From positions 1 through 38,243 of the forward strand of contig VHCW01000043.1 in the NCBI GenBank assembly GCA_016871575.1: DNA of 38,243 nt, in the 5' to 3' direction. Position 1 is the stretch's first letter; each line of letters opens with the position of its first letter. This document shows positions 17,937 to 38,180 of this stretch, piece after piece. This stretch comes from Verrucomicrobiota bacterium (lineage in GTDB: Bacteria; Verrucomicrobiota; Verrucomicrobiia; Palsa-1439). The translations under genes and the position numbers were made by a program. A model generated the notes under the pieces. It saw only the letters and a list, made by a program, of their open reading frames with translations. It searched no databases and had not been told where the DNA came from.

Positions 17937-18097
17937 GGTTTTTCTGCCTCATCAATCAACATCACCGGAATCCCGTCACGGATCGGATACTTCAATCCAC
18001 ACTGCGGGTTCTGGCAGACGATCTTCTCGCCCTCCAGTTTCACCGGCGACTTGCATTTCGGACAAGCCAAAATCTCCAACAGTTCCTTGTCAATCAT
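17933..18097 (-). CDS. Trm112-like (UPF0434) zinc-ribbon protein
   Basis: A 54-residue gene that is easily missed. The translation MIDKELLEILACPKCKSP continues with a second Cys pair, QNPQCGLKYPIRDGIPVML, giving Cys12, Cys15, Cys28 and Cys33, a zinc-ribbon as in bacterial Trm112/YcaR proteins. In eukaryotes and archaea Trm112 activates methyltransferases; the bacterial role is less clear. Both ends overlap neighbours by four bases: ATGA with the larC stop upstream and GTGA with the glycosyltransferase start downstream. It therefore sits as a translationally coupled middle gene. One more Cys pair than the minimum is not seen. Length and motif order are standard. Confidence 0.88.
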   Translation of the reverse strand: MIDKELLEILACPKCKSPVKLEGEKIVCQNPQCGLKYPIRDGIPVMLIDEAEKP

Positions 18098-19248
18098 GTT
18101 GTCTCCTTCGCCGCGTCATACACCTCGCGCACCGGCACATTCGCCAATGCCGCCGCCCGCTTGCAGGACTCGTATTCGGGCGACCGCGTCACCACCTGGC
18201 CATTCCATCGTCCGATCTTCACCTCGATCTCACCGAACCGCGTTGCCACCCGCACGATTTCGCGGTCCAGCTTCCGCCGTCGCGCCTCGTGGATGCGCAC
18301 GCCGAAACTCGTTGTGTGCGTCAACACCAACTCCGCGAAACGGTCCGCATCGCCCGGCTCGCACAACACCGTCAGCAACGTTCCCGGCCGGCTCTTCTTC
18401 ATCTGCACCGGCGTCAGGAACGCGTCCAAGGCGCCCTCGGCCAGCAACCGCTCCATCACATCGCCAAACCATTGCGGGTTCATGTCGTCAATGTTCGCTT
18501 CGATCACCGCGACGGTGTCCGCTTCACTTGTCGAGGCAACCCCCAGCACGGCGCGCAACACATTCGGCGTCTTTTCCAATTCCCGCGTCCCGGCGCCGTA
18601 CCCGATCTTCTCGACTGACATCGCCGGCATCGGCCCAAACTTCTTGCAGAACTCTACCAGAAGCGCCGCCCCGGTGGGTGTGACGAGTTCGCAACGTTCC
18701 GGTGACGATTGGGTGGGGACGCCTTTGAGCAACTCCAGCGTGGCCGGAGCCGGGATGGGGAACTTGCCGTGCGCCGTCTCGACAAACCCGGAGCCGAGCG
18801 GCGGCGGCGCGGCTTGCACGTCCTGCACACCAAGCGCTTTCAGCGCGATGCACACGCCGACAATGTCCACAATGGAATCCACCGCGCCGATCTCGTGGAA
18901 ATGGACTTTCTCCAGCGGAATGCCGTGGATTCTGGCTTCCACTTCGCCCAGGGAGTGAAACACGTTCGTCGCGCGTTGTTTCACGCCGTCAGGCAACTTG
19001 CTGTGGAAGATCATCGCCGCAATCTCCGAGTAGCTCCGGTGAGCGTGTTCGTGCTCGGTGATGCAATCGAACTTCGTGGCGACGATATGCTGCTTCGTGA
19101 CGCGGCGCGTTTCGATCTGGTAGCCGTGAAGGGGCAGCTTGGCCAGTTCGTTCCGGACATGGTCTTCCCGGACGCCGAGATCAAGCAGCGCCCCCAGCAG
19201 CATGTCGCCGCTGATCCCAGCAAAACAATCGAGGTAAAGGAGTTTCAT
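18094..19248 (-). CDS. larC: Nickel-pincer cofactor nickel chelatase LarC
   Basis: Inserts nickel into the pyridinium-bisthiocarboxylate mononucleotide, the last step in making the nickel-pincer cofactor of lactate racemase and related LarA-type enzymes. The 384-residue protein starts MKLLYLDCFAGISGDM, the conserved opening, and contains EHEHAHRSYSEIAAMI, FHEIGAVDSIVDIVG, and the C-terminal IEANIDDMNPQ. It is one uninterrupted frame, unlike the Lactiplantibacillus gene, which needs a programmed frameshift. The ATG at 19248 is preferred over 19317, since the extra N-terminus is not conserved. A diverged copy of its first 15 codons lies 700 bases upstream at 19898-19960. larA and larE were not found in the window. 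Confidence 0.93.
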   Translation of the reverse strand: MKLLYLDCFAGISGDMLLGALLDLGVREDHVRNELAKLPLHGYQIETRRVTKQHIVATKFDCITEHEHAHRSYSEIAAMIFHSKLPDGVKQRATNVFHSLGEVEARIHGIPLEKVHFHEIGAVDSIVDIVGVCIALKALGVQDVQAAPPPLGSGFVETAHGKFPIPAPATLELLKGVPTQSSPERCELVTPTGAALLVEFCKKFGPMPAMSVEKIGYGAGTRELEKTPNVLRAVLGVASTSEADTVAVIEANIDDMNPQWFGDVMERLLAEGALDAFLTPVQMKKSRPGTLLTVLCEPGDADRFAELVLTHTTSFGVRIHEARRRKLDREIVRVATRFGEIEVKIGRWNGQVVTRSPEYESCKRAAALANVPVREVYDAAKETT

Positions 19249-19313
19249 ATTGGCTGCCAATGCGGAACGAATACTACCAGATGAATGCAACGGATGTCCA
19301 TTGCCGCAGAATA

Positions 19314-19595
19314 TCAAAAGGAATCCAGAAACCGTTGTACGTCGTCATGATTGCCGATCAGATGAAGCATGACCACGTCCTTTTCCGGTTGAGTAAACAC
19401 GACACGACAGCGTTGCCCAAGGCGCAACTCAAAAACTCCACGCAGATGAATCTTGCGCACGCCCAACCCGGCGTGACGATGGGGTTGGCCGAGCGCCAGC
19501 GGAAGTTCCTTCACGGCATCGGCGAGTTGCAGGCGGAGGTCGTCTGGAGCGTGTTCGAGTTGACGTTGGATGCGGCGCGACAGCACAATTCTCAT
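19314..19595 (-). CDS. RelE/ParE-superfamily toxin (module 2)
   Basis: A 93-residue protein with the compact RelE-like layout: N-terminal helices (SRRIQRQLEHAPDDLRLQLADAV), then beta strands (RGVFELRLGQRCRVVFTQPEKDVVMLHLIGNHDDVQRFL). RelE-type toxins cleave ribosome-bound mRNA, and ParE types poison gyrase; the strand pattern here is nearer RelE, but no full catalytic set can be confirmed. The start overlaps the antitoxin stop as ATGA, the usual antitoxin-first arrangement. It lies 65 bases upstream of larC on the same strand, within what would otherwise be a lar operon. Confidence 0.8.
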   Translation of the reverse strand: MRIVLSRRIQRQLEHAPDDLRLQLADAVKELPLALGQPHRHAGLGVRKIHLRGVFELRLGQRCRVVFTQPEKDVVMLHLIGNHDDVQRFLDSF

Positions 19596-19864
19596 GTGCG
19601 TCGGCGTGGCTTGGTGATGGTGGCGGCAAACGCAGCAGGCGACTCGTGGACTTGGGCAACGCCGTCTTCCAATTCCGTACGGGCTTCGTGCGCCAGGTAG
19701 TCGGCGGCGGCATTACTCACGCGAAGTGCCGGTGCTTCATCCGCCGGCACAATGGCTGCCACCGGCTTCGATCCGCGCGTAATCACAACCCGTTCGCCTC
19801 GCAACGCAGCATCCACGAGCGCATCAAGCTGTGTCTTGGCATCGGCAAGTGTGGTCTTCGTCAT
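19592..19864 (-). CDS. Phd/YefM-type antitoxin (module 2)
   Basis: A 90-residue protein whose first half matches Phd/YefM antitoxins: TLADAKTQLDALVDAALRGERVVITRGSKPVAAIVPADE, in which the ERVVITRGSKPVAAIVP strand-turn is diagnostic. This part forms the DNA-binding dimer that represses its own operon; the C-terminal segment would wrap and neutralise the toxin. The gene begins 33 bases after a decayed larC fragment. Its stop overlaps the toxin start by four bases. Confidence 0.85.
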   Translation of the reverse strand: MTKTTLADAKTQLDALVDAALRGERVVITRGSKPVAAIVPADEAPALRVSNAAADYLAHEARTELEDGVAQVHESPAAFAATITKPRRRT

Positions 19865-19897
19865 CGCGCTCCAATCTGGACTACCAAGCCTCGCCCG

Positions 19898-19960
19898 TCA
19901 AGCACTGGTAACGCTGTCGCCGCCGGTGCCGGCAAAACAATCAAGGTGGAGGAATTTCAT
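19898..19960 (-). pseudogene. Decayed 5' fragment of a second larC copy
   Basis: On the minus strand an ATG at 19960 encodes MKFLHLDCFAGTGGDSVTSA and then stops. Its first 15 residues match the intact LarC start MKLLYLDCFAGISGD at 11 positions, and the 45 underlying bases match at 37, including runs through GATTGTTTTGC. After codon 15 the similarity ends. The ATG overlaps the upstream ParE-like toxin's stop as ATGA, the normal operon junction in this genome. It is best read as the stub of a former larC gene, cut off when the downstream DNA was replaced or invaded; chance similarity is unlikely. Confidence 0.8.
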
Positions 19961-20253
19961 TTGAGTCGTTCGCGCCAATAGCCGGGTTTTCGATGCAGAT
20001 GCATGACTGCGATAACCTGCAAATGATCGGCACGACTTCGATAAATGAGGCCGTAGGGAAAGCGTTGAATTCGGTATTGACGGACACCGGGATCAATTTC
20101 AGTGGCGAGTTCGGGAAACTGATTGATCCGGTTCACTGCCGCTCGGACGGAATGAACGAAGTGACGCGCCAAACCAGCTTGCTGGGCTTCGTAGTAACGG
20201 ATGGACTCCCAAAACTCCTGCCGTGCTTCAGGATGGAAGCCGACCTGGTTCAT
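19957..20253 (-). CDS. ParE/RelE-family toxin (module 1)
   Basis: A 98-residue ParE-like toxin: an N-terminal FHPEARQEFWESIRYYEAQ helix, the helix-turn LARHFVHSVRAAVNRINQFPE, then RQYRIQRFPYGLIYRSRADHLQVIAVMHLHRKPGYW with the F-PY-LIYR strand and the final H-x-RKPGYW typical of plasmid-stabilisation toxins. The family inhibits DNA gyrase or translation. The start overlaps its antitoxin's stop (ATGA). Its own stop overlaps, again as ATGA, the start of the larC stub, which indicates that this toxin once preceded an intact larC directly. Confidence 0.88.
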   Translation of the reverse strand: MNQVGFHPEARQEFWESIRYYEAQQAGLARHFVHSVRAAVNRINQFPELATEIDPGVRQYRIQRFPYGLIYRSRADHLQVIAVMHLHRKPGYWRERLK

Positions 20254-20474
20254 CCCAAAATCTTTTCCGCTTCGGCAAAGACTTCATCGGCAGGGATCGT
20301 TTTCACAACGCCTCGGTCTAATTCATCGCAGCGTCGTCGGATCTCAGTGTGCCACTCTGCACTTACCGAAAAGTCGTCGCCGTCATCGAGGCTTTCAAGA
20401 AGCTTCTCTGCCAACAACGCCCGCGAAGGACGAGGCAGTTGCAACGCTTCACTGATGATTTCTTGCGTGCTCAT
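20250..20474 (-). CDS. Addiction-module antitoxin, TIGR02574-like (module 1)
   Basis: A 74-residue acidic protein: EIISEALQLPRPSRALLAEKLLESLDD followed by EWHTEIRRRCDELDRGVVKTIPADEVFAEAEKIL, the signature of the putative addiction-module component family that pairs with ParE-like toxins. The first part contains the dimerising/DNA-contacting helices. It begins 55 bases after larB and is presumably transcribed either with it or from its own promoter, which I could not identify. Confidence 0.88.
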   Translation of the reverse strand: MSTQEIISEALQLPRPSRALLAEKLLESLDDGDDFSVSAEWHTEIRRRCDELDRGVVKTIPADEVFAEAEKILG

Positions 20475-20529
20475 CTGGACACGAATCTACGCGGATGCCG
20501 CGTCAGGTCAATCTGATTTTCATTTCCAC

Positions 20530-21285
20530 TCACGTCGGGGCGAGGCGGTTAATCAAGCCCGCCGCGTAACCCGCCCCGAAGCCGTTGTTGATGTTGACCA
20601 CTGTCACGCCACTGGCGCAACTGTTGAGCATCGCCAGCAGGGCGGCGATGCCGCCGAAACTGGCGCCGTAGCCGACGCTGGTCGGGACCGCGATGACAGG
20701 CTTGTCCACGAGACCACCCACGACGCTCGGCAGGGCGCCTTCCATCCCGGCGACGACGATGAGGACGTTGGCCGCGAGGAGTTCTTCGTTGACGGCCAGC
20801 AACCGGTGCAGGCCGGCGACGCCGATGTCGTAGAAACGTTTCACCGTGTTGCCCATGATGTCGGCAGTGACGGCGGCTTCCTCGGCGACGGGGATGTCGG
20901 TCGTGCCGGCGCAGAGGATGGCAACGGTGCCGGGGTGTTTGGGCAACGGCTTTTTGGTAACGGTGACGATGCGGGCTTCGGCGTGGTGCTTGGCCTTCGG
21001 AAAGGCGCGTCGCAGGGCGCGGACGACGTCGGGCGCGCAACGGGTGGCGAGCAGGTTATCGTTGTGGGCGAGGATGGCGCGGGCGATCTTGACGACTTGT
21101 AGTGGTGTTTTCCCTTCTGAGTAGATGACTTCGGGAAAGCCTTTGCGCAAGGAGCGATGGCCGTCCACGCGGGCAAACTTCAGGTCATGGGTGCCGAGGG
21201 ATTTCAGTTGGCGGACGGCGTCGGCGGTTTTCAGCCGGCCTGCCTGCACTTGGTCGAGCAGTTCGATGAGACGGGATTCGTTCAT
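20530..21285 (-). CDS. larB: Nickel-pincer cofactor biosynthesis protein LarB
   Basis: Carboxylates and hydrolyses nicotinic acid adenine dinucleotide, the first step toward the nickel-pincer cofactor. The 251-residue protein shares the fold of AIR carboxylase PurE: AILCAGTTDIPVAEEAAVTA, then GVAGLHRLL, VAGMEGALPSVVGGLVDKPVIAVPTSVGYG, and the closing NINNGFGAGYAA. The N-terminal helical part (MNESRLIELLDQVQAG...) is the usual LarB extension. The ATG at 21285 overlaps the preceding membrane-protein stop (ATGA). Its partner larC lies 1.28 kb further on, beyond two toxin-antitoxin modules. Confidence 0.95.
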   Translation of the reverse strand: MNESRLIELLDQVQAGRLKTADAVRQLKSLGTHDLKFARVDGHRSLRKGFPEVIYSEGKTPLQVVKIARAILAHNDNLLATRCAPDVVRALRRAFPKAKHHAEARIVTVTKKPLPKHPGTVAILCAGTTDIPVAEEAAVTADIMGNTVKRFYDIGVAGLHRLLAVNEELLAANVLIVVAGMEGALPSVVGGLVDKPVIAVPTSVGYGASFGGIAALLAMLNSCASGVTVVNINNGFGAGYAAGLINRLAPT

Positions 21286-21701
21286 GTCGGCACTCCAAAC
21301 AAGGCTTTTACGGAGGGCCGCATCAGGGCGATAATGGTGAACACGCCCAGCACGGTGCCGAACGGCACGAACATGCAGCCGATGCCGGCCATGACCATGC
21401 AATACATGTAATGCCTGTGCTTGCTCAGGCAACGTCCCGCTGCCAACAGGCACGCGGCAAACGCCCAGCCCGCGGCGATAAAACAGGCTGCGAAGATGAT
21501 GAAGAACCACCCCAGAAACGCTGGCGGCGGGTTCTTCGGTCCGCCCATTTTTTCCGGACAGGCCACCATGAAGATGCCGAGCACCAGATGGATGACCGGG
21601 AGGCAGGCAAACAACGCCGCCAGCCCGGCCGCGATGTAGTGAAAGATGGACAGCAACCGGAGTTGGTCGGCGTCCTGGGTATTGGGGGGTGTTCCGTTCA
21701 T
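21282..21701 (-). CDS. Small membrane protein upstream of larB, function unknown
   Basis: A 139-residue protein that I do not recognise by family. After a polar N-terminus (MNGTPPNTQDADQLRLL) it has about four hydrophobic segments: IFHYIAAGLAALFACLPV, IHLVLGIFMV, FLGWFFIIFAACFIAAGWAF and MAGIGCMFVPFGTVLGVFTI. Cysteines occur in or near several segments. The stop overlaps the larB ATG by four bases, so it is translationally coupled to larB and could serve in nickel or precursor handling, but that is only positional inference. The ATG at 21701 has GGAG 3 bases upstream, closer than ideal; a start at 21740 would also be open. Confidence 0.65.
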   Translation of the reverse strand: MNGTPPNTQDADQLRLLSIFHYIAAGLAALFACLPVIHLVLGIFMVACPEKMGGPKNPPPAFLGWFFIIFAACFIAAGWAFAACLLAAGRCLSKHRHYMYCMVMAGIGCMFVPFGTVLGVFTIIALMRPSVKALFGVPT

Positions 21702-30522: not shown

Positions 30523-31944
30523 CTATTTTCTTTTTTTCTGGGGTTGCCAGCGCGGTTCCCAGTCGGGAGATGCCTTGCGCGCAGTCTTGAGGTAGGCGCC
30601 GATTTTTTCCGCAATCTCCGGGTGCTGCGCGGCGACGTTGGTTTGCTCGGCGACATCGTTTTTCAAGTCGTACAGAACCACCGTGGCATCGGGATTGCCG
30701 GACCGGATGCCTTTCCACCGGCCTTGATACAGCGCGGCCTGTTTGAATCCTCCTTCGTGGAATTCCCAGTAGAGAAACTCGTGGCGTTTCTGGTCGCCCG
30801 TCTTGCCGCGCAACGTCGGCGCGAAACTGACCGAGTCAACGTCGCCGGGCGTTTTCGCCCCGGCCAGTTCGGCGGCCGTGGCCATCCAGTCGCCGAAGTA
30901 ACCGACGTGGACGGTCGCGATGCCGGGCTTGACGGTGCCCGGCCACCAGGCGATGAACGGAACGCGGATGCCGCCATCGGTGAGGCTGCGTTTGATGCCG
31001 GTGAACGGGCCGGACGGCTGGAAACGCGCGAGGTTGTGGCTGCTCTCGTTGTGCGGGCCGTTGTCGCTGGTGAAGATGACGAGCGTGTTTTTCTCCAAGC
31101 CGAGCAGCCGCAGATGCTCCATCAGGCGGCCCACGTAACTGTCCATGCGCGTGATCATCGCCGCCTGTCCCTTGTCCTGCGCCGGCCAATCCTTGCCGGC
31201 GTAGGGGCCGTAGTCGGGCGCGTGCGCGCCGTCTTTGAGGTCGCGATTGCGCTCGTTGTTGGCGTGCGGAATGACCATGCTCCAGTACAGGAAGAACGGC
31301 CGGTCCTGGTGTTGCGTCACAAATGTCAGCGCCGCATCGGCGAACAGATCATCGGCGTACAGCAGGCCGTCCGCCGCGTACCCCGCGCCGGTGTCGCCCA
31401 CGGGCGTGATGACGTTGGGCAGCGCGACGCGCGTTTCGTTGCGCCAGAGGAAGTCGGGGAAATGATTGTGGGCATGATGTTGATTGAGGTAGCCAAAGAA
31501 ATAATCGAAACCTTGTTTGCGCGGCAGGCCGGTGTCCGCCGGGCCGGCGTCGCCGAGTCCCCACTTGCCGATGAGCGCGGTCCGGTAACCGGCTTGTTGC
31601 ACGACCTTGGCCACGGTGACGTCGTGCCCCTTCAGCGCCTGCGCGGTCGGATTGTCCGCGCCGGCGTTGCCGCGCACGGGCGTGCGGCCTTGATGCTGGC
31701 CGGTCATGAGGACGCTGCGCGACGGGGCGCAAACGGTGGCGCCGGCATAGAACTGCGTGAAGCGCATTCCTTCGCGCGCCATCCGGTCCAGATGCGGCGT
31801 GAGGATGACCTTCTGGCCGTAACAACCGAGGTCGCCGTAGCCGAGGTCATCGGCCATGATCCAGATGAGATTGGGCGGCCGCCCTGCTGCGAATGACGAA
31901 ACCAGAATGACGAATGATGACAGGACAACCAGGACGGATTTCAT
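30523..31944 (-). CDS. Secreted Cys-type sulfatase (arylsulfatase A-like)
   Basis: The 473-residue protein has a signal peptide ([20 protein letters not shown]), the metal site [19 protein letters not shown], and [18 protein letters not shown] with Cys72 as the formylglycine residue. [11 protein letters not shown] and the [10 protein letters not shown] motif fit the N-acetylgalactosamine-6-sulfatase/arylsulfatase A branch, in which Lys of the KWGLG motif contacts the sulfate. A short, very basic C-terminus (QPQKKRK) follows the fold, similar to the tail of the next-upstream sulfatase. Its ATG shares ATGA with that gene's stop. Substrate position is not predictable. Confidence 0.92.
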
Positions 31945-33506
31945 TGTTGTTTCTTCTTTTGTTTTCCGGCGGCTTTTGCTTTTGGCCCTGCCTTCGGTTG
32001 TTGCCCGCCAAAAGAACCGGGCGGATCTTGAGCGGGAACCTTCAACTCGGCGCGGAGCCGGTTGAGTTCGTCGTGAAGTTCTTTGCGCGTCTTGGCGTAG
32101 GACGGGTCATCGTAAACATTTTTCAACTCGTGAGAATCCTTCTCGCGGTCAATGAGCGTCCAGTAGTTCATCTCCGTCTCGTAGAAGTGGAACAGCTTGT
32201 AACGGTCGGTGACAACACCGTAGTGACGGCGAACGCTGTGCGCGCCGGGGAATTCGTAGTAGTGATAGTAGAAACTTTTCCGCCAATCAGACGGTGTCTT
32301 GCCGGCAAGCACTGGTCGGAGGCTGCGTCCCTGCATGTCGGCAGGAATCGGCAGCCCGGCGGCATCGAGGAAGGTTTCGGGGAAATCAAGGATGGAGACG
32401 AGCGATTTGTTTGACGTGCCGGCCTTGGTCACGCCGGGCCAGCGGACGATCAGTGGCGTGGTAACGGATTCCTCGTAAATCCAGCGTTTGTCGAACCAGC
32501 CGTGTTCGCCGAGGTAGAAACCCTGATCGGAGGAGACGATGACCATCGTGTCCTGCGCGAGTCCTTCGTCGTCGAGATATTTCAACATTGCCCCCACGGC
32601 TTCGTCCACGGCTTTCACGGTGCCGAGGTAATCGTGCATGTAACGCTGGTACCGCCAGCGAACGAGGTCTTTGCCGGTGAGGTTGGCTTTGCGGAACGCT
32701 TCATTGCGCGGTTCGTAGTAGGCATCCCAGATTGTGCGCTGTTCCTCGTTGAGATAGGGCGGCGCGACCAGCTTGGCGTCGCGGTCGTTGAACGTCTTCG
32801 CCAGCGTCATGTCCTGTTCCTTCTCGGCGCGACCGCGTCCGGAGTAGTCGTCGAACAAGGTCTCCGGCTCCGGGAACTTGTTGTCGCCGTTCCATCCGAG
32901 ATGACGTAACGCGGGCGCCCATTCGCGGTGCGGTGCCTTGTGTTGGCTCATGAGCATGAACGGTTTTGATTTGTCGCGCTTCTTGAGCCACTCGATGGAG
33001 AACTCGGAGATCAAATCGGTGGTGTAGCCGGTGTGCGTGACGCGCTCGCCGTTGCGAAACATCGGCGGGTTGTAGTAGATGCCCTGGCCGGGGAGGATGT
33101 GCCAATGGTCGTAGCCGACGGGATCGGTTTCGAGATGCCATTTGCCGATGACGGCGGTCTGGTAACCGGCTTGTTGAAGGAGCTTGGGGAAGGTCTGCTG
33201 CGAACTGTCGAAGCGGTTGCCGTTGCGGACGAATCCGTTGATGTGGCTGTACTTGCCGGTCTGGATGACGGCGCGGCTGGGGCCGCAGATGGAGTTGGGC
33301 ACCAGACAGCGGTCAAACCGGATGCCTTCGCGCGCAAGCCGGTCCATGTGCGGCGTCTTCAACAGCTTGAGCTTGTGACCGTAGGCGCTGATGGCTTGAC
33401 TGGTCAGGTCATCGGCGAAGATGAAGATGATGTTGGGGCGTTTCTCAGCGGCAAATGTGGAAGCCAGGATGAGAACCGACGCCAGTGAGAGCAGGAGTTG
33501 TTTCAT
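31941..33506 (-). CDS. Secreted Cys-type sulfatase with lysine-rich tail
   Basis: A 521-residue exported sulfatase (signal peptide [20 protein letters not shown]). [10 protein letters not shown] starts the fold; [19 protein letters not shown] gives Cys74 as the formylglycine site; [12 protein letters not shown] and [20 protein letters not shown] complete the active site. The K-YSH-NGF context recalls the N-acetylglucosamine-6-sulfatase branch. After the fold comes a low-complexity basic tail ([17 protein letters not shown]) that could bind polyanionic substrate or the cell envelope. The ATG at 33506 has AAGG 7 bases upstream and is preferred; a TTG at 33524 would form a TTGA overlap with the neighbour's stop but puts six odd residues before the signal peptide. 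Confidence 0.92.
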
Positions 33507-33520
33507 GACGATACCTTGAT

Positions 33521-35011
33521 TCAACGGATTTTCAGGTCAGGCAGTTCGGACTTGATGCCTTCGTCCAGCGGCATCTTGTCGTTTTGCTGTGTGAGTCCGA
33601 CCTGCTTCATGACGTTCAACAGCTCGCGCTGCATTTGTCGGACAACGCCGGTGTACTTGGGGTTGTCAATCAGGTTGTGGCGTTCCTCGGGGTCGAACTC
33701 GATGTTGTACAACTCGGCCTTGTGCCGGTCAGGACTGCCGTCGCCGTGCGGCGAGTGGGTGTATTTCCACGTCTCGGTGCGGACGCTTCGGACGTTCGGG
33801 GTGTAGGGGAACTGTTTCTCGTAATTGTAGTAGTAGAGCCACGACTTGCGCCACGAACGGTCGCCGCGTTGCGCGAGTTTCACCCAGGATTTGCCGTGAA
33901 TGTTCGGCAGGGAGGGCGCGCCGCAAAGCTCCAGCAGACTCGGCGCAACGTCCACGGTGAGCACCTGTTGCTCGACGATCTTCGGCTGCGTGGGCGCGGT
34001 GAGGCCGGGGAAGCGGACGACCTGCACGATGCGGATGCTCGGCTCGTGGGCGGTGCGTTTGTCCACCATGCCGTGTTCGCCGTTGAGGATGCCGTTGTCG
34101 CTCATGAACACGATAATGGTGTTGTCCAGTTCGCCGCGCTGCCGGAGCAATTCGTAGAGCCGTCCAACGCTGTCGTCCACCGACAGCAACGTGGCCCAGT
34201 AGGCGCGCGTCATCGCCTCGAAATCCTTGACCGCTTCCGGCGAGTCGTCGGGAAACTTCTTTCGCCAATCGAACAGCGGCCCGTAGATGCCGTGCCACGT
34301 GTAGAGGCGTTGCTTGATCCACGCGGGCTTGTCGTCGAGCATGAAGGCGGTCTCAGGATACGGGACGCGAACCCGCTCGAACGTCTTCTCGTACTTCGGT
34401 TCCGGGAAGTAGAAACTGTGCGGCGCCTTGTGGCCGAGCATCAGGCACCACGGCTTGCCGTCGCGCGGGCGTTTCAGCCAGTCCTCGGCCATGTCGGTGA
34501 CCACGTGGGTGTAGTAGCCTTTCACGACCTCGCGTTTCTGGCCGTTGAAGTTGAACTCGGTGTCGAAGTATTTGCCCTGCCCCTTGTGGGTGACAAACCA
34601 GTTGAAGCCGGGACGCGGATTATCGTTGTCCTCGCCCATGTGCCATTTGCCGATGTAGGCGGTGTCGTACCCGATGGATTGCAACACCATCGGGAAGCTT
34701 TTGAAGTTCGACGGGTACTCGGTGAAATTGTTGACCACGCCGTGCGCGTGCGCGTACAGGCCGCTGAGGATGCTCGCCCGGCTCGGCGAACAGAGCGAGG
34801 TCGTGCAGAAGGCGTTCTTGAAATAAACGCCTTCCCGGCCGAGCCGGTCCATGTTCGGCGTCTTCAGATGCTTGCTGCCGCCCAAGCCGATGGCGTCCCA
34901 TCGCTGGTCATCGGTCAGCATGAAGAGGACATTGGGTTTCTTGTTGGCGGCAAGGGCCGACGTGGTGAGGGCGATGATGCCGGTGATCAGTAGGGTGATG
35001 TAGTGGTTCAT
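33521..35011 (-). CDS. Secreted N-acetylglucosamine-6-sulfatase-like sulfatase
   Basis: A 496-residue exported protein (signal peptide [20 protein letters not shown]). The core is [16 protein letters not shown], then [20 protein letters not shown] with Cys74 as formylglycine precursor, [15 protein letters not shown], and [13 protein letters not shown]. The stretch [18 protein letters not shown] followed by VVNN resembles human glucosamine-6-sulfatase (CCPSRASILTG...VVNN) more than the other copies do, so 6-O-desulfation of an N-acetylhexosamine is a fair guess. The ATG at 35011 overlaps the upstream sulfatase stop as ATGA; an upstream start at 35029 would lie inside that gene. Confidence 0.9.
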
Positions 35012-36339
35012 GGTGTTGGTTTCTGCCACGGCGTCGCGCCGCCGCGCTGGATGTGGGCGCGGAGGGCGGTGGCGAGTTCATTGAACACTTTCTTGTTTGC
35101 GGTGGCCAGATTATTTTTCTCCTGCGGGTCGGTTTTCAGGTTGTAGAGTTCCATCGGGCTGTACGGATTGTTTTGCATCAATTTCCAGTCGCCGCGGATG
35201 ATGGCCTCGTAACTCTTGCCGCCGTACTGCGGGCCGCCCTCGCGACGGACGAAGTAGAGGTCGCGCGTCTTGTTGATCGTGCCGCCCCGCAGCGCCGGCG
35301 CGAGGCTGACGGCATCGAGGTCGGCGGACGGTTTTACCCCGGCAAGTTCGAGGAAGGTTGGGACCAAGTCGAAGTTCAGCCCGGCATAATCACAGCGCGA
35401 CCCAGCCTTGATCTGCGCCGGCCAGCGCGCCATGAAGGGCACCCGCAGGCCGCCGTCGTAGTGGTCCTGTTTGCCGCCGCGCCACGGGTCGTTGTTCTGC
35501 GCGTGCGGCAACGAACCGCCGTTGTCGGCGCTGAACACGACAAGCGTGTTGTGTTCGAGGCCGGTCTCCTTGAGGGCGGCGAGCACGCGACCGATCCGGT
35601 CGTCGAGATGCTCGACGAACGCGACGTTCTTGGCGCGTTTCTCGTCGAGCTGCGGCGCGCGCTGTTTGACCTTGGCCAGCCAGTCGTCGGGCGGTTCGAT
35701 GGGGAAATGCGGCGCGTTGTAGGCCAGATAGAGAAAGAACGGCTGTTGTTTCTTCTTGGCGCGTTCGCGGATGTAATCGGCGGCCCAGTCGGAAAACAGA
35801 TCGGTCGCGTGCCCCTTCGGCTCGATGACAACGTCGTTGCGGCGCATGTAATTGTTGCCGTGACGCAGATGCGTCGTGTAGCTGTCCATCATGTCGCCGA
35901 GGAACCCGTGGAAGAAATCAAACCCGCGCTCATTGGGTGTGTTGGGCGATTCGAGACCGAGATGCCATTTGCCGACAATGGCCGTGTGATAACCGGCCTT
36001 CTTCAGTTCATCTGCGATGGTCGGCGTTTTCGGATCAAAGTAACCCCACGAGTTTTCCAGTTGCGTGCGAATCACGCCCGGCACGCCGACGCGGTCCGGG
36101 TATTGCCCGGTCAACAGCGCGGCGCGCGACGGCGAGCAAACAGTGCAGTTCGCGCGCATCGTGGTGAACAACATTCCCTCCGTCGCGATGCGGTCAATGT
36201 TCGGCGTCCGCACGTCCGACTGGTGGTACGCGGACACGTCGCCGTAGCCGTGGTCGTCGGTGAAAATCAGCAGGAAGTTCGGGCGCGGCGCGGCAAAAGC
36301 CTGGACGCAACAGAACAGAAAAAGAAGGAGGTGTTTCAT
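35008..36339 (-). CDS. Secreted Cys-type sulfatase (arylsulfatase A-like)
   Basis: The smallest of the group, 443 residues, with a short signal peptide ([16 protein letters not shown]). [19 protein letters not shown] opens the fold; [19 protein letters not shown] carries Cys68 for formylglycine; [13 protein letters not shown] and [15 protein letters not shown] are the remaining active-site motifs. The protein ends shortly after the small C-terminal domain ([21 protein letters not shown]), so it is a minimal sulfatase. AAGAAGGAGG sits 6-7 bases before the ATG, the best ribosome-binding site of the operon, and the ATG also overlaps the preceding stop. Substrate unknown. Confidence 0.93.
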
Positions 36340-38180
36340 GGTTGTTTGGTGACAACGACGTAGTAGGCGCCGACTTCATTGCCGTCGTTGCTGGTGAACA
36401 CCGGCGCGAGTTGATGCGACCCGCCGGTGAGCTTGACGTTGAACGTGACTTCTTTGGCTCCGGCGGCAACGGGCTTCCTTGCCAATTCCCGTCCATCAAT
36501 CCGCAGGATCGCCTGCGTGACCGGAATGGCCACGCCTTCGTGGGCGCGAAACGCCTTGTCCGCCCCCGTCACATCAGCGCCCGCCGGCAGACCGGCGGTG
36601 ATGGGCGCGTCCGCTTCCACCGGCCAGCGGCGCAGGCTGACCGTGTACGTGCCCGGTGTGATGACTTTCACGGCCCAATGACCGCGGTGAACGGATTGTC
36701 CGGGCGCAGTCTTGACGGCTTTCTTACCTTTACCGGCCGGTCGTGATGCGGATCCAAAGCCATGCCCTCTGCGGATCTGCTGTTGGTTCCACGGCGGCAG
36801 TTCCTCCTGAATCCAATCGTGCGCGGTCAGGCTGACGACCGGATGACCGGGATGACCGAGGTAAATCTCCGTGGTCTGCGCGAACGTTGGTTCCAGTTCC
36901 GCCCACCACGCATCGTAAAACGCCCGCATCCGCTCCGCCACCGCCGCGTGATCGGCGATGACGTTGCGCTCTTGGCCGGGGTCGTCGTGGATGTTGTAAA
37001 GCTCCTTGCCGTTGATCAACCGCCACGGGCCGGACATGACGGCGGTTTGTTTCCACTTGATCGGGTCGCGCACGCGCTGCGAATCGGTCACGAGGATCCG
37101 GTCGCGCGGCCAGTGGTCGGTCCTGCCGGCAGGATCGAGCAAGGGACGGATCGAGATGCCGTCGAATTTGAGTCCTGCCGGTCTCTTCGCGCCGGTGACG
37201 TCGAGCAACGTCGGCACGATGTCCACGGCGTGACACAGGATGTTGCTGACGTGTTTCTTCGTCCAGCCGCCTCCCGGCCAGTAGGCGAAGAACGGCACGC
37301 GGTGGCCGCCTTCGTACTCGCTCCCTTTTTTGCCGCGCATACCGGCATTGAACACCTTCTCGCCGGTGGCGGTGCCGTTGTCGGTGGTGAAAATGAACAG
37401 CGTGTTCTGCTCGATGCCGAGTTCCCGCAACAACGCGCGGGTCTCGCCCACGTTGTCGTCAATGTTGGAGATCATCCCAAAGAACGCCGCGATGGCCGGC
37501 GGTTGTCCTTTGTACATGTCGAGATACTTCTGCGGCGCATGGAGCGGGCTGTGCGGGGCGTTCGGCGCGATGTAGGCGAGGAACGGTTTCTTCTCTTTGG
37601 CGCACTCGCGGATGAACCGGCGCGCCTGCTCAAAAAACACGTCCGTGCAAAAGCCTTTCGCCGCGACGACCTTGCCGTTGTGAAAGTAATGGCCGTCGAA
37701 GTAGGAGTTGTCCCAGAGATCGGGCGTCTGCCCCACGCCGCCGGCGCCGTGGTGATAGACCTCGGTGAATCCGCGGTCTTCGGGGCGGTAGGGGAAATTA
37801 TCGCCGAGATGCCATTTGCCGAACATGCCGGTGGCGTAGCCGTGGTCCTTGAGAAGCTGGCCGAGCGTGATTTCGTTGTCGCGCAACATGGACCGGCCAT
37901 TGATGGTGTGCCAGACGCCGGTGCGGTTGGTCCAGTGCCCGGTCAGCAACGCGGAGCGCGTGGGCGAACAGGTGGGTCCGACGTGAAAGTCGGTGAGTTG
38001 CGAAGATACCGCCGCCAGCCGGTCAAGGTGAGGCGTCTTGATGATGGGATTGCCGGTGCAGCCGAGATCGCCGTAGCCCTGGTCGTCGGTCATGATGAGG
38101 ACGATGTTGGGACGGCTTGGCGCCGCGAAGCCGGTCGCGCAAATGGAAAGCGCCACGATCAGGGCAGGAATTGAATTCAT
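36336..38180 (-). CDS. Secreted arylsulfatase with extra C-terminal beta domain
   Basis: The first and longest sulfatase of the operon, 614 residues. Signal peptide MNSIPALIVALSICATGFAA; metal site NIVLIMTDDQGYGDLGCTG; PTCSPTRSALLTGHWTNRTG with Cys71, where Thr replaces the more usual Ser of CxPSR, which the maturation machinery of the family tolerates; GMFGKWHLGDNFP; FTTDNGTATGEKV. The sulfatase fold ends near residue 470. A basic linker (RPAGKGKKAVKTA) leads to an added domain of about 110 residues (HRGHWAVKVITPGTYTVSLR to the C-terminus) that looks like an all-beta carbohydrate-binding-type fold. The ATG at 38180 has AAAGGA upstream; the start at 38204 adds a non-signal-like lead. Confidence 0.92.
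   Translation of the reverse strand: MNSIPALIVALSICATGFAAPSRPNIVLIMTDDQGYGDLGCTGNPIIKTPHLDRLAAVSSQLTDFHVGPTCSPTRSALLTGHWTNRTGVWHTINGRSMLRDNEITLGQLLKDHGYATGMFGKWHLGDNFPYRPEDRGFTEVYHHGAGGVGQTPDLWDNSYFDGHYFHNGKVVAAKGFCTDVFFEQARRFIRECAKEKKPFLAYIAPNAPHSPLHAPQKYLDMYKGQPPAIAAFFGMISNIDDNVGETRALLRELGIEQNTLFIFTTDNGTATGEKVFNAGMRGKKGSEYEGGHRVPFFAYWPGGGWTKKHVSNILCHAVDIVPTLLDVTGAKRPAGLKFDGISIRPLLDPAGRTDHWPRDRILVTDSQRVRDPIKWKQTAVMSGPWRLINGKELYNIHDDPGQERNVIADHAAVAERMRAFYDAWWAELEPTFAQTTEIYLGHPGHPVVSLTAHDWIQEELPPWNQQQIRRGHGFGSASRPAGKGKKAVKTAPGQSVHRGHWAVKVITPGTYTVSLRRWPVEADAPITAGLPAGADVTGADKAFRAHEGVAIPVTQAILRIDGRELARKPVAAGAKEVTFNVKLTGGSHQLAPVFTSNDGNEVGAYYVVVTKQP

What the first reader, a model, noticed from the sequence alone, without database searches (positions are those of the whole stretch)
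19249..20529. Two toxin-antitoxin modules and a larC stub split larB from larC
The order on the minus strand is larB, module 1 (TIGR02574-like antitoxin plus ParE), a 20-codon larC stub, module 2 (Phd antitoxin plus RelE-like), intact larC. The stub matches the intact start at 37 of the first 45 bases and 11 of 15 residues. It joins module 1 by an ATGA overlap, so module 1 plus larC was once a continuous operon. The simplest history is that a segment carrying module 2 and a diverged larC came in by recombination, displaced the resident larC and left its first codons. A lar operon guarded by two addiction modules would resist loss of the cofactor pathway.
Basis: partly seen in the sequence, partly recalled or inferred. 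Interest (0 to 1): 0.85.

Follow-up and report, generated by a model that had tools for sequence, protein, structure and literature searches.

The report
Toxin-antitoxin insertions scarred by gene-end copies
In a family of uncultured Verrucomicrobia, small toxin-antitoxin gene pairs keep landing at the edges of ordinary genes and leave short spare copies of the gene's end behind; the larC stub in this window is one such scar, probably left when incoming DNA swapped in a new front part of larC.

Summary
The window's LarC is a mosaic: residues 1-130 are only 60% identical to the same-genus relative, residues 181-384 are 86%, and larB (88%) and flanking genes (90-91%) fit the species. So the incoming segment probably carried module 2, a larC leader and only the front part of larC. 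The stub is a decaying relic, not a recent local copy. The larB-larC gap is a repeated insertion site: other genera have larC stubs with other modules, mirrored larB 3'-end copies around MazEF, and remnants of module 2 at the same place. The pattern is wider than lar: 13 of 114 other toxin-antitoxin domains in this family are bracketed by direct repeats (41-129 bp, often gene 3' ends such as glmS), against 0.35% of control positions. Closest known phenomena: 'insertion with long target duplication' of restriction-modification systems, and homology-facilitated illegitimate recombination. That the modules guard the lar operon was not tested, and nothing here requires it.

The parts
20530..21285 (-). 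larB, resident copy
   Evidence: NF033503 E 1e-89; 88% identical to same-genus G001, as expected for the species
20250..20474 (-). module 1 antitoxin (TIGR02574 / PF09720)
   Evidence: promoter-like TTGACC-16-TAGATT just upstream at 20511-20484 (consensus match only)
19957..20253 (-). module 1 toxin, ParE family; stop overlaps the stub start as ATGA
   Evidence: PF05016 E 4e-8; sequence
19898..19960 (-). larC stub: 20 codons, homologous to larC over about 46 bases, then non-homologous to the TGA
19592..19864 (-). module 2 antitoxin, Phd/YefM family
   Evidence: PF02604 E 5e-11; 73% over 33 aa to a remnant at the same site in G008
19314..19595 (-). module 2 toxin, RelE/YoeB/YafQ-like fold
   Evidence: no Pfam hit above cut-off; model pLDDT 73, Foldseek prob 1.00 to RelE 1wmi and other RelE-family toxins
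19249..19313 (-). 65-bp larC leader with promoter-like TGGACA-N18-TAGTAT
   Evidence: aligns to the leader of the stand-alone larC of G009, which has the same two hexamers and spacing
18859..19248 (-). front part of larC (residues 1-130), probably exchanged
   Evidence: 60% identical to same-genus G001 although residues 181-384 are 86%; breakpoint estimates mostly residue 114-147, one at 63
18094..18708 (-). rear part of larC (residues 181-384 and stop), resident
   Evidence: sister to G001, support 91/91

Best explanation
The larB-larC junction is a recurrent landing site for toxin-antitoxin modules and other small ORFs in this verrucomicrobial family. In the window lineage, larC first lay directly behind module 1, joined by ATGA. 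A DNA segment from a relative then came in. It carried module 2, a larC leader with its own promoter and the front part of a diverged larC. Its downstream end recombined homologously inside the resident larC (somewhere between codons about 105 and 240). Its upstream end was joined without homology just behind codon 15 of the resident larC. The outcome is a hybrid full-length larC, a module newly lodged upstream of it, and the first codons of the old larC left as a decaying stub. This is homology-facilitated illegitimate recombination, in which one homologous end anchors the entry of non-homologous DNA. Shown: the anatomy, the mosaic LarC, the same kind of scar in other genera, and the family-wide association of such scars with toxin-antitoxin modules. 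Inferred: the donor, the order of events, the recombination mechanism, and the likely present transcription of larC from the 65-bp leader.
For: Mosaic LarC: 60% to G001 in residues 1-130 (others pair with the window at 66-74%) but 86% in 181-384; informative-site walks put the change of affinity at residue 114-147 in most cases, permutation p 2e-4 with G002, G005, G010 and also with G003 (break at residue 63), not significant with G004, G006 or G009; larB 88%, rng 91%, GT2 90% to G001. Stub closer to G005 larC (40/45) than to the present larC (37/45), while the present larC start is 42/45 to G010. Leader shared with a stand-alone larC in G009, alignment score above all 500 shuffles, best of 12 regions compared. 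G003: 153-aa ORF, larC stub (63 bp, 90.5%), antitoxin/ParE, larC. G008: larB, MazEF, larB 3'-end copy (70 bp, 94%), ORF, larC stub (47 bp, 91.5%), antitoxin remnant, larC. G007: MazEF then a larB-end remnant, then larC. The G008 remnant joins a piece of the window's Phd to a piece of G003's antitoxin, so one pool of modules visits this site. Short gaps of 67-114 bp without modules in G002, G005, G010.
Against: The AU test does not reject G000+G001 as sisters in the N part (p 0.125). Only one same-genus relative is held, and it has its own insertion and an aberrant N part, so the exchange may have been in G001. The illegitimate joint cannot be inspected because no donor or pre-insertion sequence is known. 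High identity of some other scars (98%) fits plain target duplication equally well.
Confidence: 0.58

Rival explanations
1. Insertion with long target duplication: module 2 inserted into the start of larC and the target (about 46 bp) was copied to both sides, as described for restriction-modification systems; the stub then drifted. No foreign larC is needed.
For: 15 of 117 toxin-antitoxin domains in the family are bracketed by direct repeats of 41-129 bp, 81-98% identical, mostly gene 3' ends, for example glmS in the same genome. Literature: target duplications of the order of 100 bp for RM systems (PMC3874152, PMC1643837).
Against: In the window itself the stub shares none of the present larC's private synonymous bases and is nearer to another genus, and LarC is mosaic.
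Confidence: 0.25
2. Ancestral array with differential loss: the family ancestor had several modules separated by larC and larB end copies, and recombination between the copies removed different modules in different lineages.
For: Pieces of the same modules occur at the same site in the window, G003, G007 and G008.
Against: G002, G005, G006 and G010 have short gaps without stubs, so many complete losses would be needed; the scars differ in extent (46, 47, 63, 70 bp).
Confidence: 0.1
3. The stub is functional, for example a leader peptide that couples toxin translation to larC.
For: ATGA overlap with ParE; larC stubs occur in three genera.
Against: Four of its 15 conserved residues are changed, against 0-2 in 11 functional larC genes; it is separated from larC by module 2 and by a promoter-like larC leader.
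Confidence: 0.03
4. Assembly artefact (chimeric contig in a metagenome-assembled genome).
For: The genome is a draft of 257 contigs.
Against: Independent assemblies of other genera show the same anatomy at the same site.
Confidence: 0.03

Closest known systems
Insertion with long target duplication of restriction-modification genes (Nobusato et al. 2000, known here through PMC3874152, PMC1643837 and PMC2654758)
   Same: An addiction-type gene pair, no transposase or integrase seen in the insert, flanked by direct repeats of tens to about 100 bp copied from the neighbouring sequence.
   Different: Here the cargo is type II toxin-antitoxin modules of at least five families, the copies are often gene ends, and at larC the two copies appear to be different alleles. 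The original papers were not readable here.
Effector-immunity arrays of Vibrio cholerae type VI clusters formed by homology-facilitated illegitimate recombination (PMC5361080)
   Same: One conserved neighbour serves as the anchor, a new toxin module is added, and remnants of the old gene stay behind; repeated rounds build an array.
   Different: There the displaced gene is a toxin; here a housekeeping cofactor gene is displaced and regenerated as a hybrid.
Operon insertion of PabI restriction-modification genes with proposed operon maintenance (PMC4615327, PMC10273834)
   Same: An addiction module inside a metabolic operon, with the suggestion that it may enforce operon upkeep.
   Different: No killing or maintenance effect has been tested for the lar modules.
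Toxin-antitoxin cassettes in integrons (reviewed in PMC2654758)
   Same: Toxin-antitoxin modules with their own promoters between repeated sequences.
   Different: At lar the repeats are gene ends that differ from locus to locus.

Membership tests
Insertion with long target duplication | Addiction-type gene pair flanked by direct repeats of tens to about 100 bp copied from the target | tested here: met
   Window 46 bp; 15 of 117 toxin-antitoxin domains
Insertion with long target duplication | Relatives with the empty site | tested here: met
   G002, G005, G010 have larB-larC gaps of 67-114 bp without module or stub
Insertion with long target duplication | Both repeat copies derive from the same target allele | tested here: inconclusive
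   At larC the stub is nearer to another genus than to the adjacent larC and the larC front is mosaic; most other loci could not be tested
Homology-facilitated illegitimate recombination | One homologous end with a donor tract running into the anchor gene | tested here: inconclusive
   LarC 60% versus 86% to G001, break about residue 114-147, but AU p 0.125
Homology-facilitated illegitimate recombination | Short microhomology at the non-homologous joint | not testable with these tools
   No donor or pre-insertion sequence is held
Type II toxin-antitoxin module (module 1) | Antitoxin and ParE-type toxin, overlapping genes | tested here: met
   PF09720 and PF05016 over cut-off, 4-base overlap
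Type II toxin-antitoxin module (module 2) | Phd/YefM antitoxin and RelE-superfamily toxin | tested here: met
   PF02604 over cut-off; RelE fold by Foldseek, prob 1.00 but E 1e-3
Type II toxin-antitoxin modules | Toxicity and neutralisation | not testable with these tools
   needs an experiment
LarC, nickel-pincer cofactor synthesis | LarC1 and LarC2 domains in one intact frame | tested here: met
   TIGR00299 E 5e-66, NF052512 E 5e-47
Integron cassette array | attC sites or integrase at the lar locus | not tested
   The repeats are larC and larB coding ends; no attC search was run

The most novel reading that the evidence does not exclude
Toxin-antitoxin modules of this family use a dedicated, still unknown insertion route that copies 40-130 bp of a gene's end so that the gene is regenerated. 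They would be minimal mobile units that spread into operons without breaking them and without a transposase of their own.
Probability: 0.2. Interest if true: 0.82.

Novelty: new variant of a known kind. Interest (0 to 1): 0.6.

Why it matters
How chromosomal toxin-antitoxin modules move when no transposon, phage or plasmid is in sight is an old question. Here they leave readable scars: about one in nine modules in this family is bracketed by a copy of neighbouring sequence, often a gene end, about thirty times the control rate. That makes the route of entry testable by strain comparison, and shows how a module can settle inside a metabolic operon with the target gene reading intact afterwards. 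The larC case also shows how a cofactor gene can be rebuilt as a hybrid in the process.

Tried and rejected
Integron or tyrosine-integrase origin at lar: the repeats are larC and larB coding ends and no integrase ORF was noticed in the interval, so not pursued. Whole-larC replacement: rejected, since residues 181-384 group with the same-genus relative. Guarded-operon function: no evidence either way. Generality beyond the family: in 29 genomes of another verrucomicrobial family, 2 of 21 PF09720 loci were bracketed, both by low-complexity or interspersed-looking repeats, so the pattern may be lineage-specific. An order-level search added no genomes. Outside the family larB is often not next to larC, so the gap cannot be followed further out. 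Relatives of the two modules in PADLOC: none. A key paper on long target duplication was not held.

Full report
WHAT IS THERE. On the minus strand the order is larB, a TIGR02574/PF09720 antitoxin with a ParE toxin (module 1), a 20-codon larC stub joined to ParE by ATGA, a Phd/YefM antitoxin with a second toxin (module 2), a 65-bp leader, and intact larC. The second toxin has no Pfam match above cut-off (weak Gp49, E 0.016), but a two-sequence AlphaFold model (pLDDT 73) matches archaeal RelE, YoeB, YafQ and HigB toxins at low sequence identity. The stub matches the larC start at 37 of 45 bases and 11 of 15 residues; in a self-comparison of the 38-kb window the pair has E 5e-6.

THE STUB IS A RELIC AND NOT A RECENT LOCAL COPY. 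Among 11 functional larC genes of the family the first 15 residues differ from consensus by 0-2 residues (not counting a GTG start); the stub differs by 4. It shares none of the synonymous bases private to the present larC and is nearer to the larC of another genus (G005, 40/45) than to its neighbour (37/45). The present larC start is nearest to G010 (42/45) and G001 (41/45).

THE PRESENT larC IS A MOSAIC. Against the only same-genus genome held (G001), LarB is 88%, Rng 91% and the downstream glycosyltransferase 90% identical. LarC residues 181-384 are 86% identical and the two are sisters (support 91/91), but residues 1-130 are only 60% identical, lower than the window's identity to every other genus (66-74%). 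For comparison, the same-genus pair G008/G010 has 90% and 87% in these two parts. Walks over informative sites change sides near residue 114-147 (permutation p 2e-4 with G002, G005 and G010; also p 2e-4 with G003 but at residue 63; not significant with G004, G006 and G009). The AU test of the N part does not reject the sister pairing (p 0.125), and G001 has its own insertion and a long N-part branch, so the exchange may have been in either lineage or both. The 65-bp leader of the present larC resembles the leader of the stand-alone larC in G009, including identical promoter-like hexamers and spacing, TGGACA-N18-TAGTAT (score above all 500 shuffles, best of 12 regions compared).

THE SITE IS VISITED AGAIN AND AGAIN. 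In G003 (another genus) larB is followed by a 153-aa ORF, a larC stub (63 bp, 90.5%), a TIGR02574 antitoxin with a ParE-type toxin whose N-terminus carries an early TAG, and larC, again with ATGA joints. In G008 the order is larB, MazEF, a copy of the larB 3' end (70 bp, 94%), a membrane ORF, a larC stub (47 bp, 91.5%), an antitoxin remnant, larC. G007 has a related MazEF (75-77%) followed by a larB-end remnant and larC. G001 has one 198-aa ORF of unknown family joined to larC by ATGA. G002, G005, G006 and G010 have gaps of 31-114 bp with no module. The 83-aa remnant in G008 is a fusion of a piece 73% identical to the window's Phd and a piece 70% identical to G003's antitoxin. The same modules therefore circulate at this site across genera.

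IT IS NOT ONLY lar. I collected 117 toxin-antitoxin domains (PF09720, PF02604, PF05016, PF01850, PF07927) from the 11 family genomes. Direct repeats of at least 35 bp and 80% identity bracket 16 of them, against 67 of 5415 control positions; inverted repeats bracket 1. With a strict filter (two copies only within the stretch, not inside one frame) it is 15 of 117, or 13 of 114 without the lar loci, against 19 of 5415 control positions (0.35%, three events in about 600 kb, one of them a VapBC pair at glnS); binomial p about 4e-16, approximate because control positions overlap. Not all 15 are equally clean: the two 58-bp loci (L170, L171) share a repeat that also forms an array, and L280 and one L285 repeat contain interspersed sequence. 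The copies are mostly gene ends: a GH4 glycosidase 3' end (90 bp, L148), glmS 3' end around VapBC in the window's own genome (82 bp, L285), a TolB-like gene (89 bp, L208), a membrane gene with AbrB/VapC (84 bp, L232), another 3' end with HicAB (81 bp, L264), and a region upstream of smc (41 bp, L143); gene names here are my reading of the translations. Below the test's threshold lies a copy beside HicAB that may be the prfC 3' end (40 bp, L156). Most of these repeats occur at no other held locus. In a second verrucomicrobial family no clean case was found in 21 loci.

HOW IT MOST LIKELY WORKS. For the window I favour anchored entry: homologous pairing in larC at one end, non-homologous joining just behind codon 15 of the resident gene at the other, producing a hybrid larC and a stub. 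This is homology-facilitated illegitimate recombination, proposed for V. cholerae effector arrays that likewise keep remnants (PMC5361080). [quoted passage not shown] The two may be one process seen at different ages, since anchored entry from a near-identical donor would look like a target duplication. No transposase or integrase was noticed in the inserts read, but they were not systematically searched for one.

WHAT I DO NOT CLAIM. No toxicity, addiction or operon-guarding effect is shown; operon maintenance by inserted RM genes has been suggested before (PMC10273834). Decay of several modules at this site argues against a needed guard. The donor and the exact joints are unknown.

Noticed in passing
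L184 (G000 contig C127) 595-4391; also L171 (C24) 381-1036: Eight copies of a 58-77 bp promoter-like repeat (TTGACAC...GTGACAATCT) spaced 396-731 bp with small ORFs or toxin-antitoxin pairs between them; two more copies flank a near-identical module on another contig, and the repeat was found only in the window's genome among 11. It looks like a cassette array without a recognised integron site.
   Followed up: partly
L285 1777-2942 (G000:C35): glmS 3' end with its downstream bases duplicated around a VapBC pair, the cleanest scar in the window's own genome.
   Followed up: yes
L190 4681-6136 (G003:C1): A VapBC-like pair sits between glnS and a second copy of the glnS 3' end (about 80 codons, itself interrupted by an inserted stretch).
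   Followed up: partly
L190 1890-2805 (G003:C1): 142-bp copy of the 3' end of an OYE-type gene around a repetitive collagen-like ORF, next to a TIGR02574 antitoxin; the same kind of scar without a toxin-antitoxin pair inside.
   Followed up: partly
L077 7297-7548 (G008): 83-aa ORF that fuses the remains of two unrelated antitoxins (Phd part and TIGR02574 part) just before larC.
   Followed up: yes
L070 6197-6793 (G001): 198-aa ORF of no known family fills the larB-larC gap and overlaps both neighbours at start and stop codons.
   Followed up: partly
window 21282-21701: 139-aa predicted membrane protein between rng and larB, without Pfam match and found in none of the other family loci compared.
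   Followed up: no
window 31053-38116: Several 40-104 bp direct repeats of 72-86% between ORFs of the 28.9-38.2 kb minus-strand cluster, probably from related genes.
   Followed up: no
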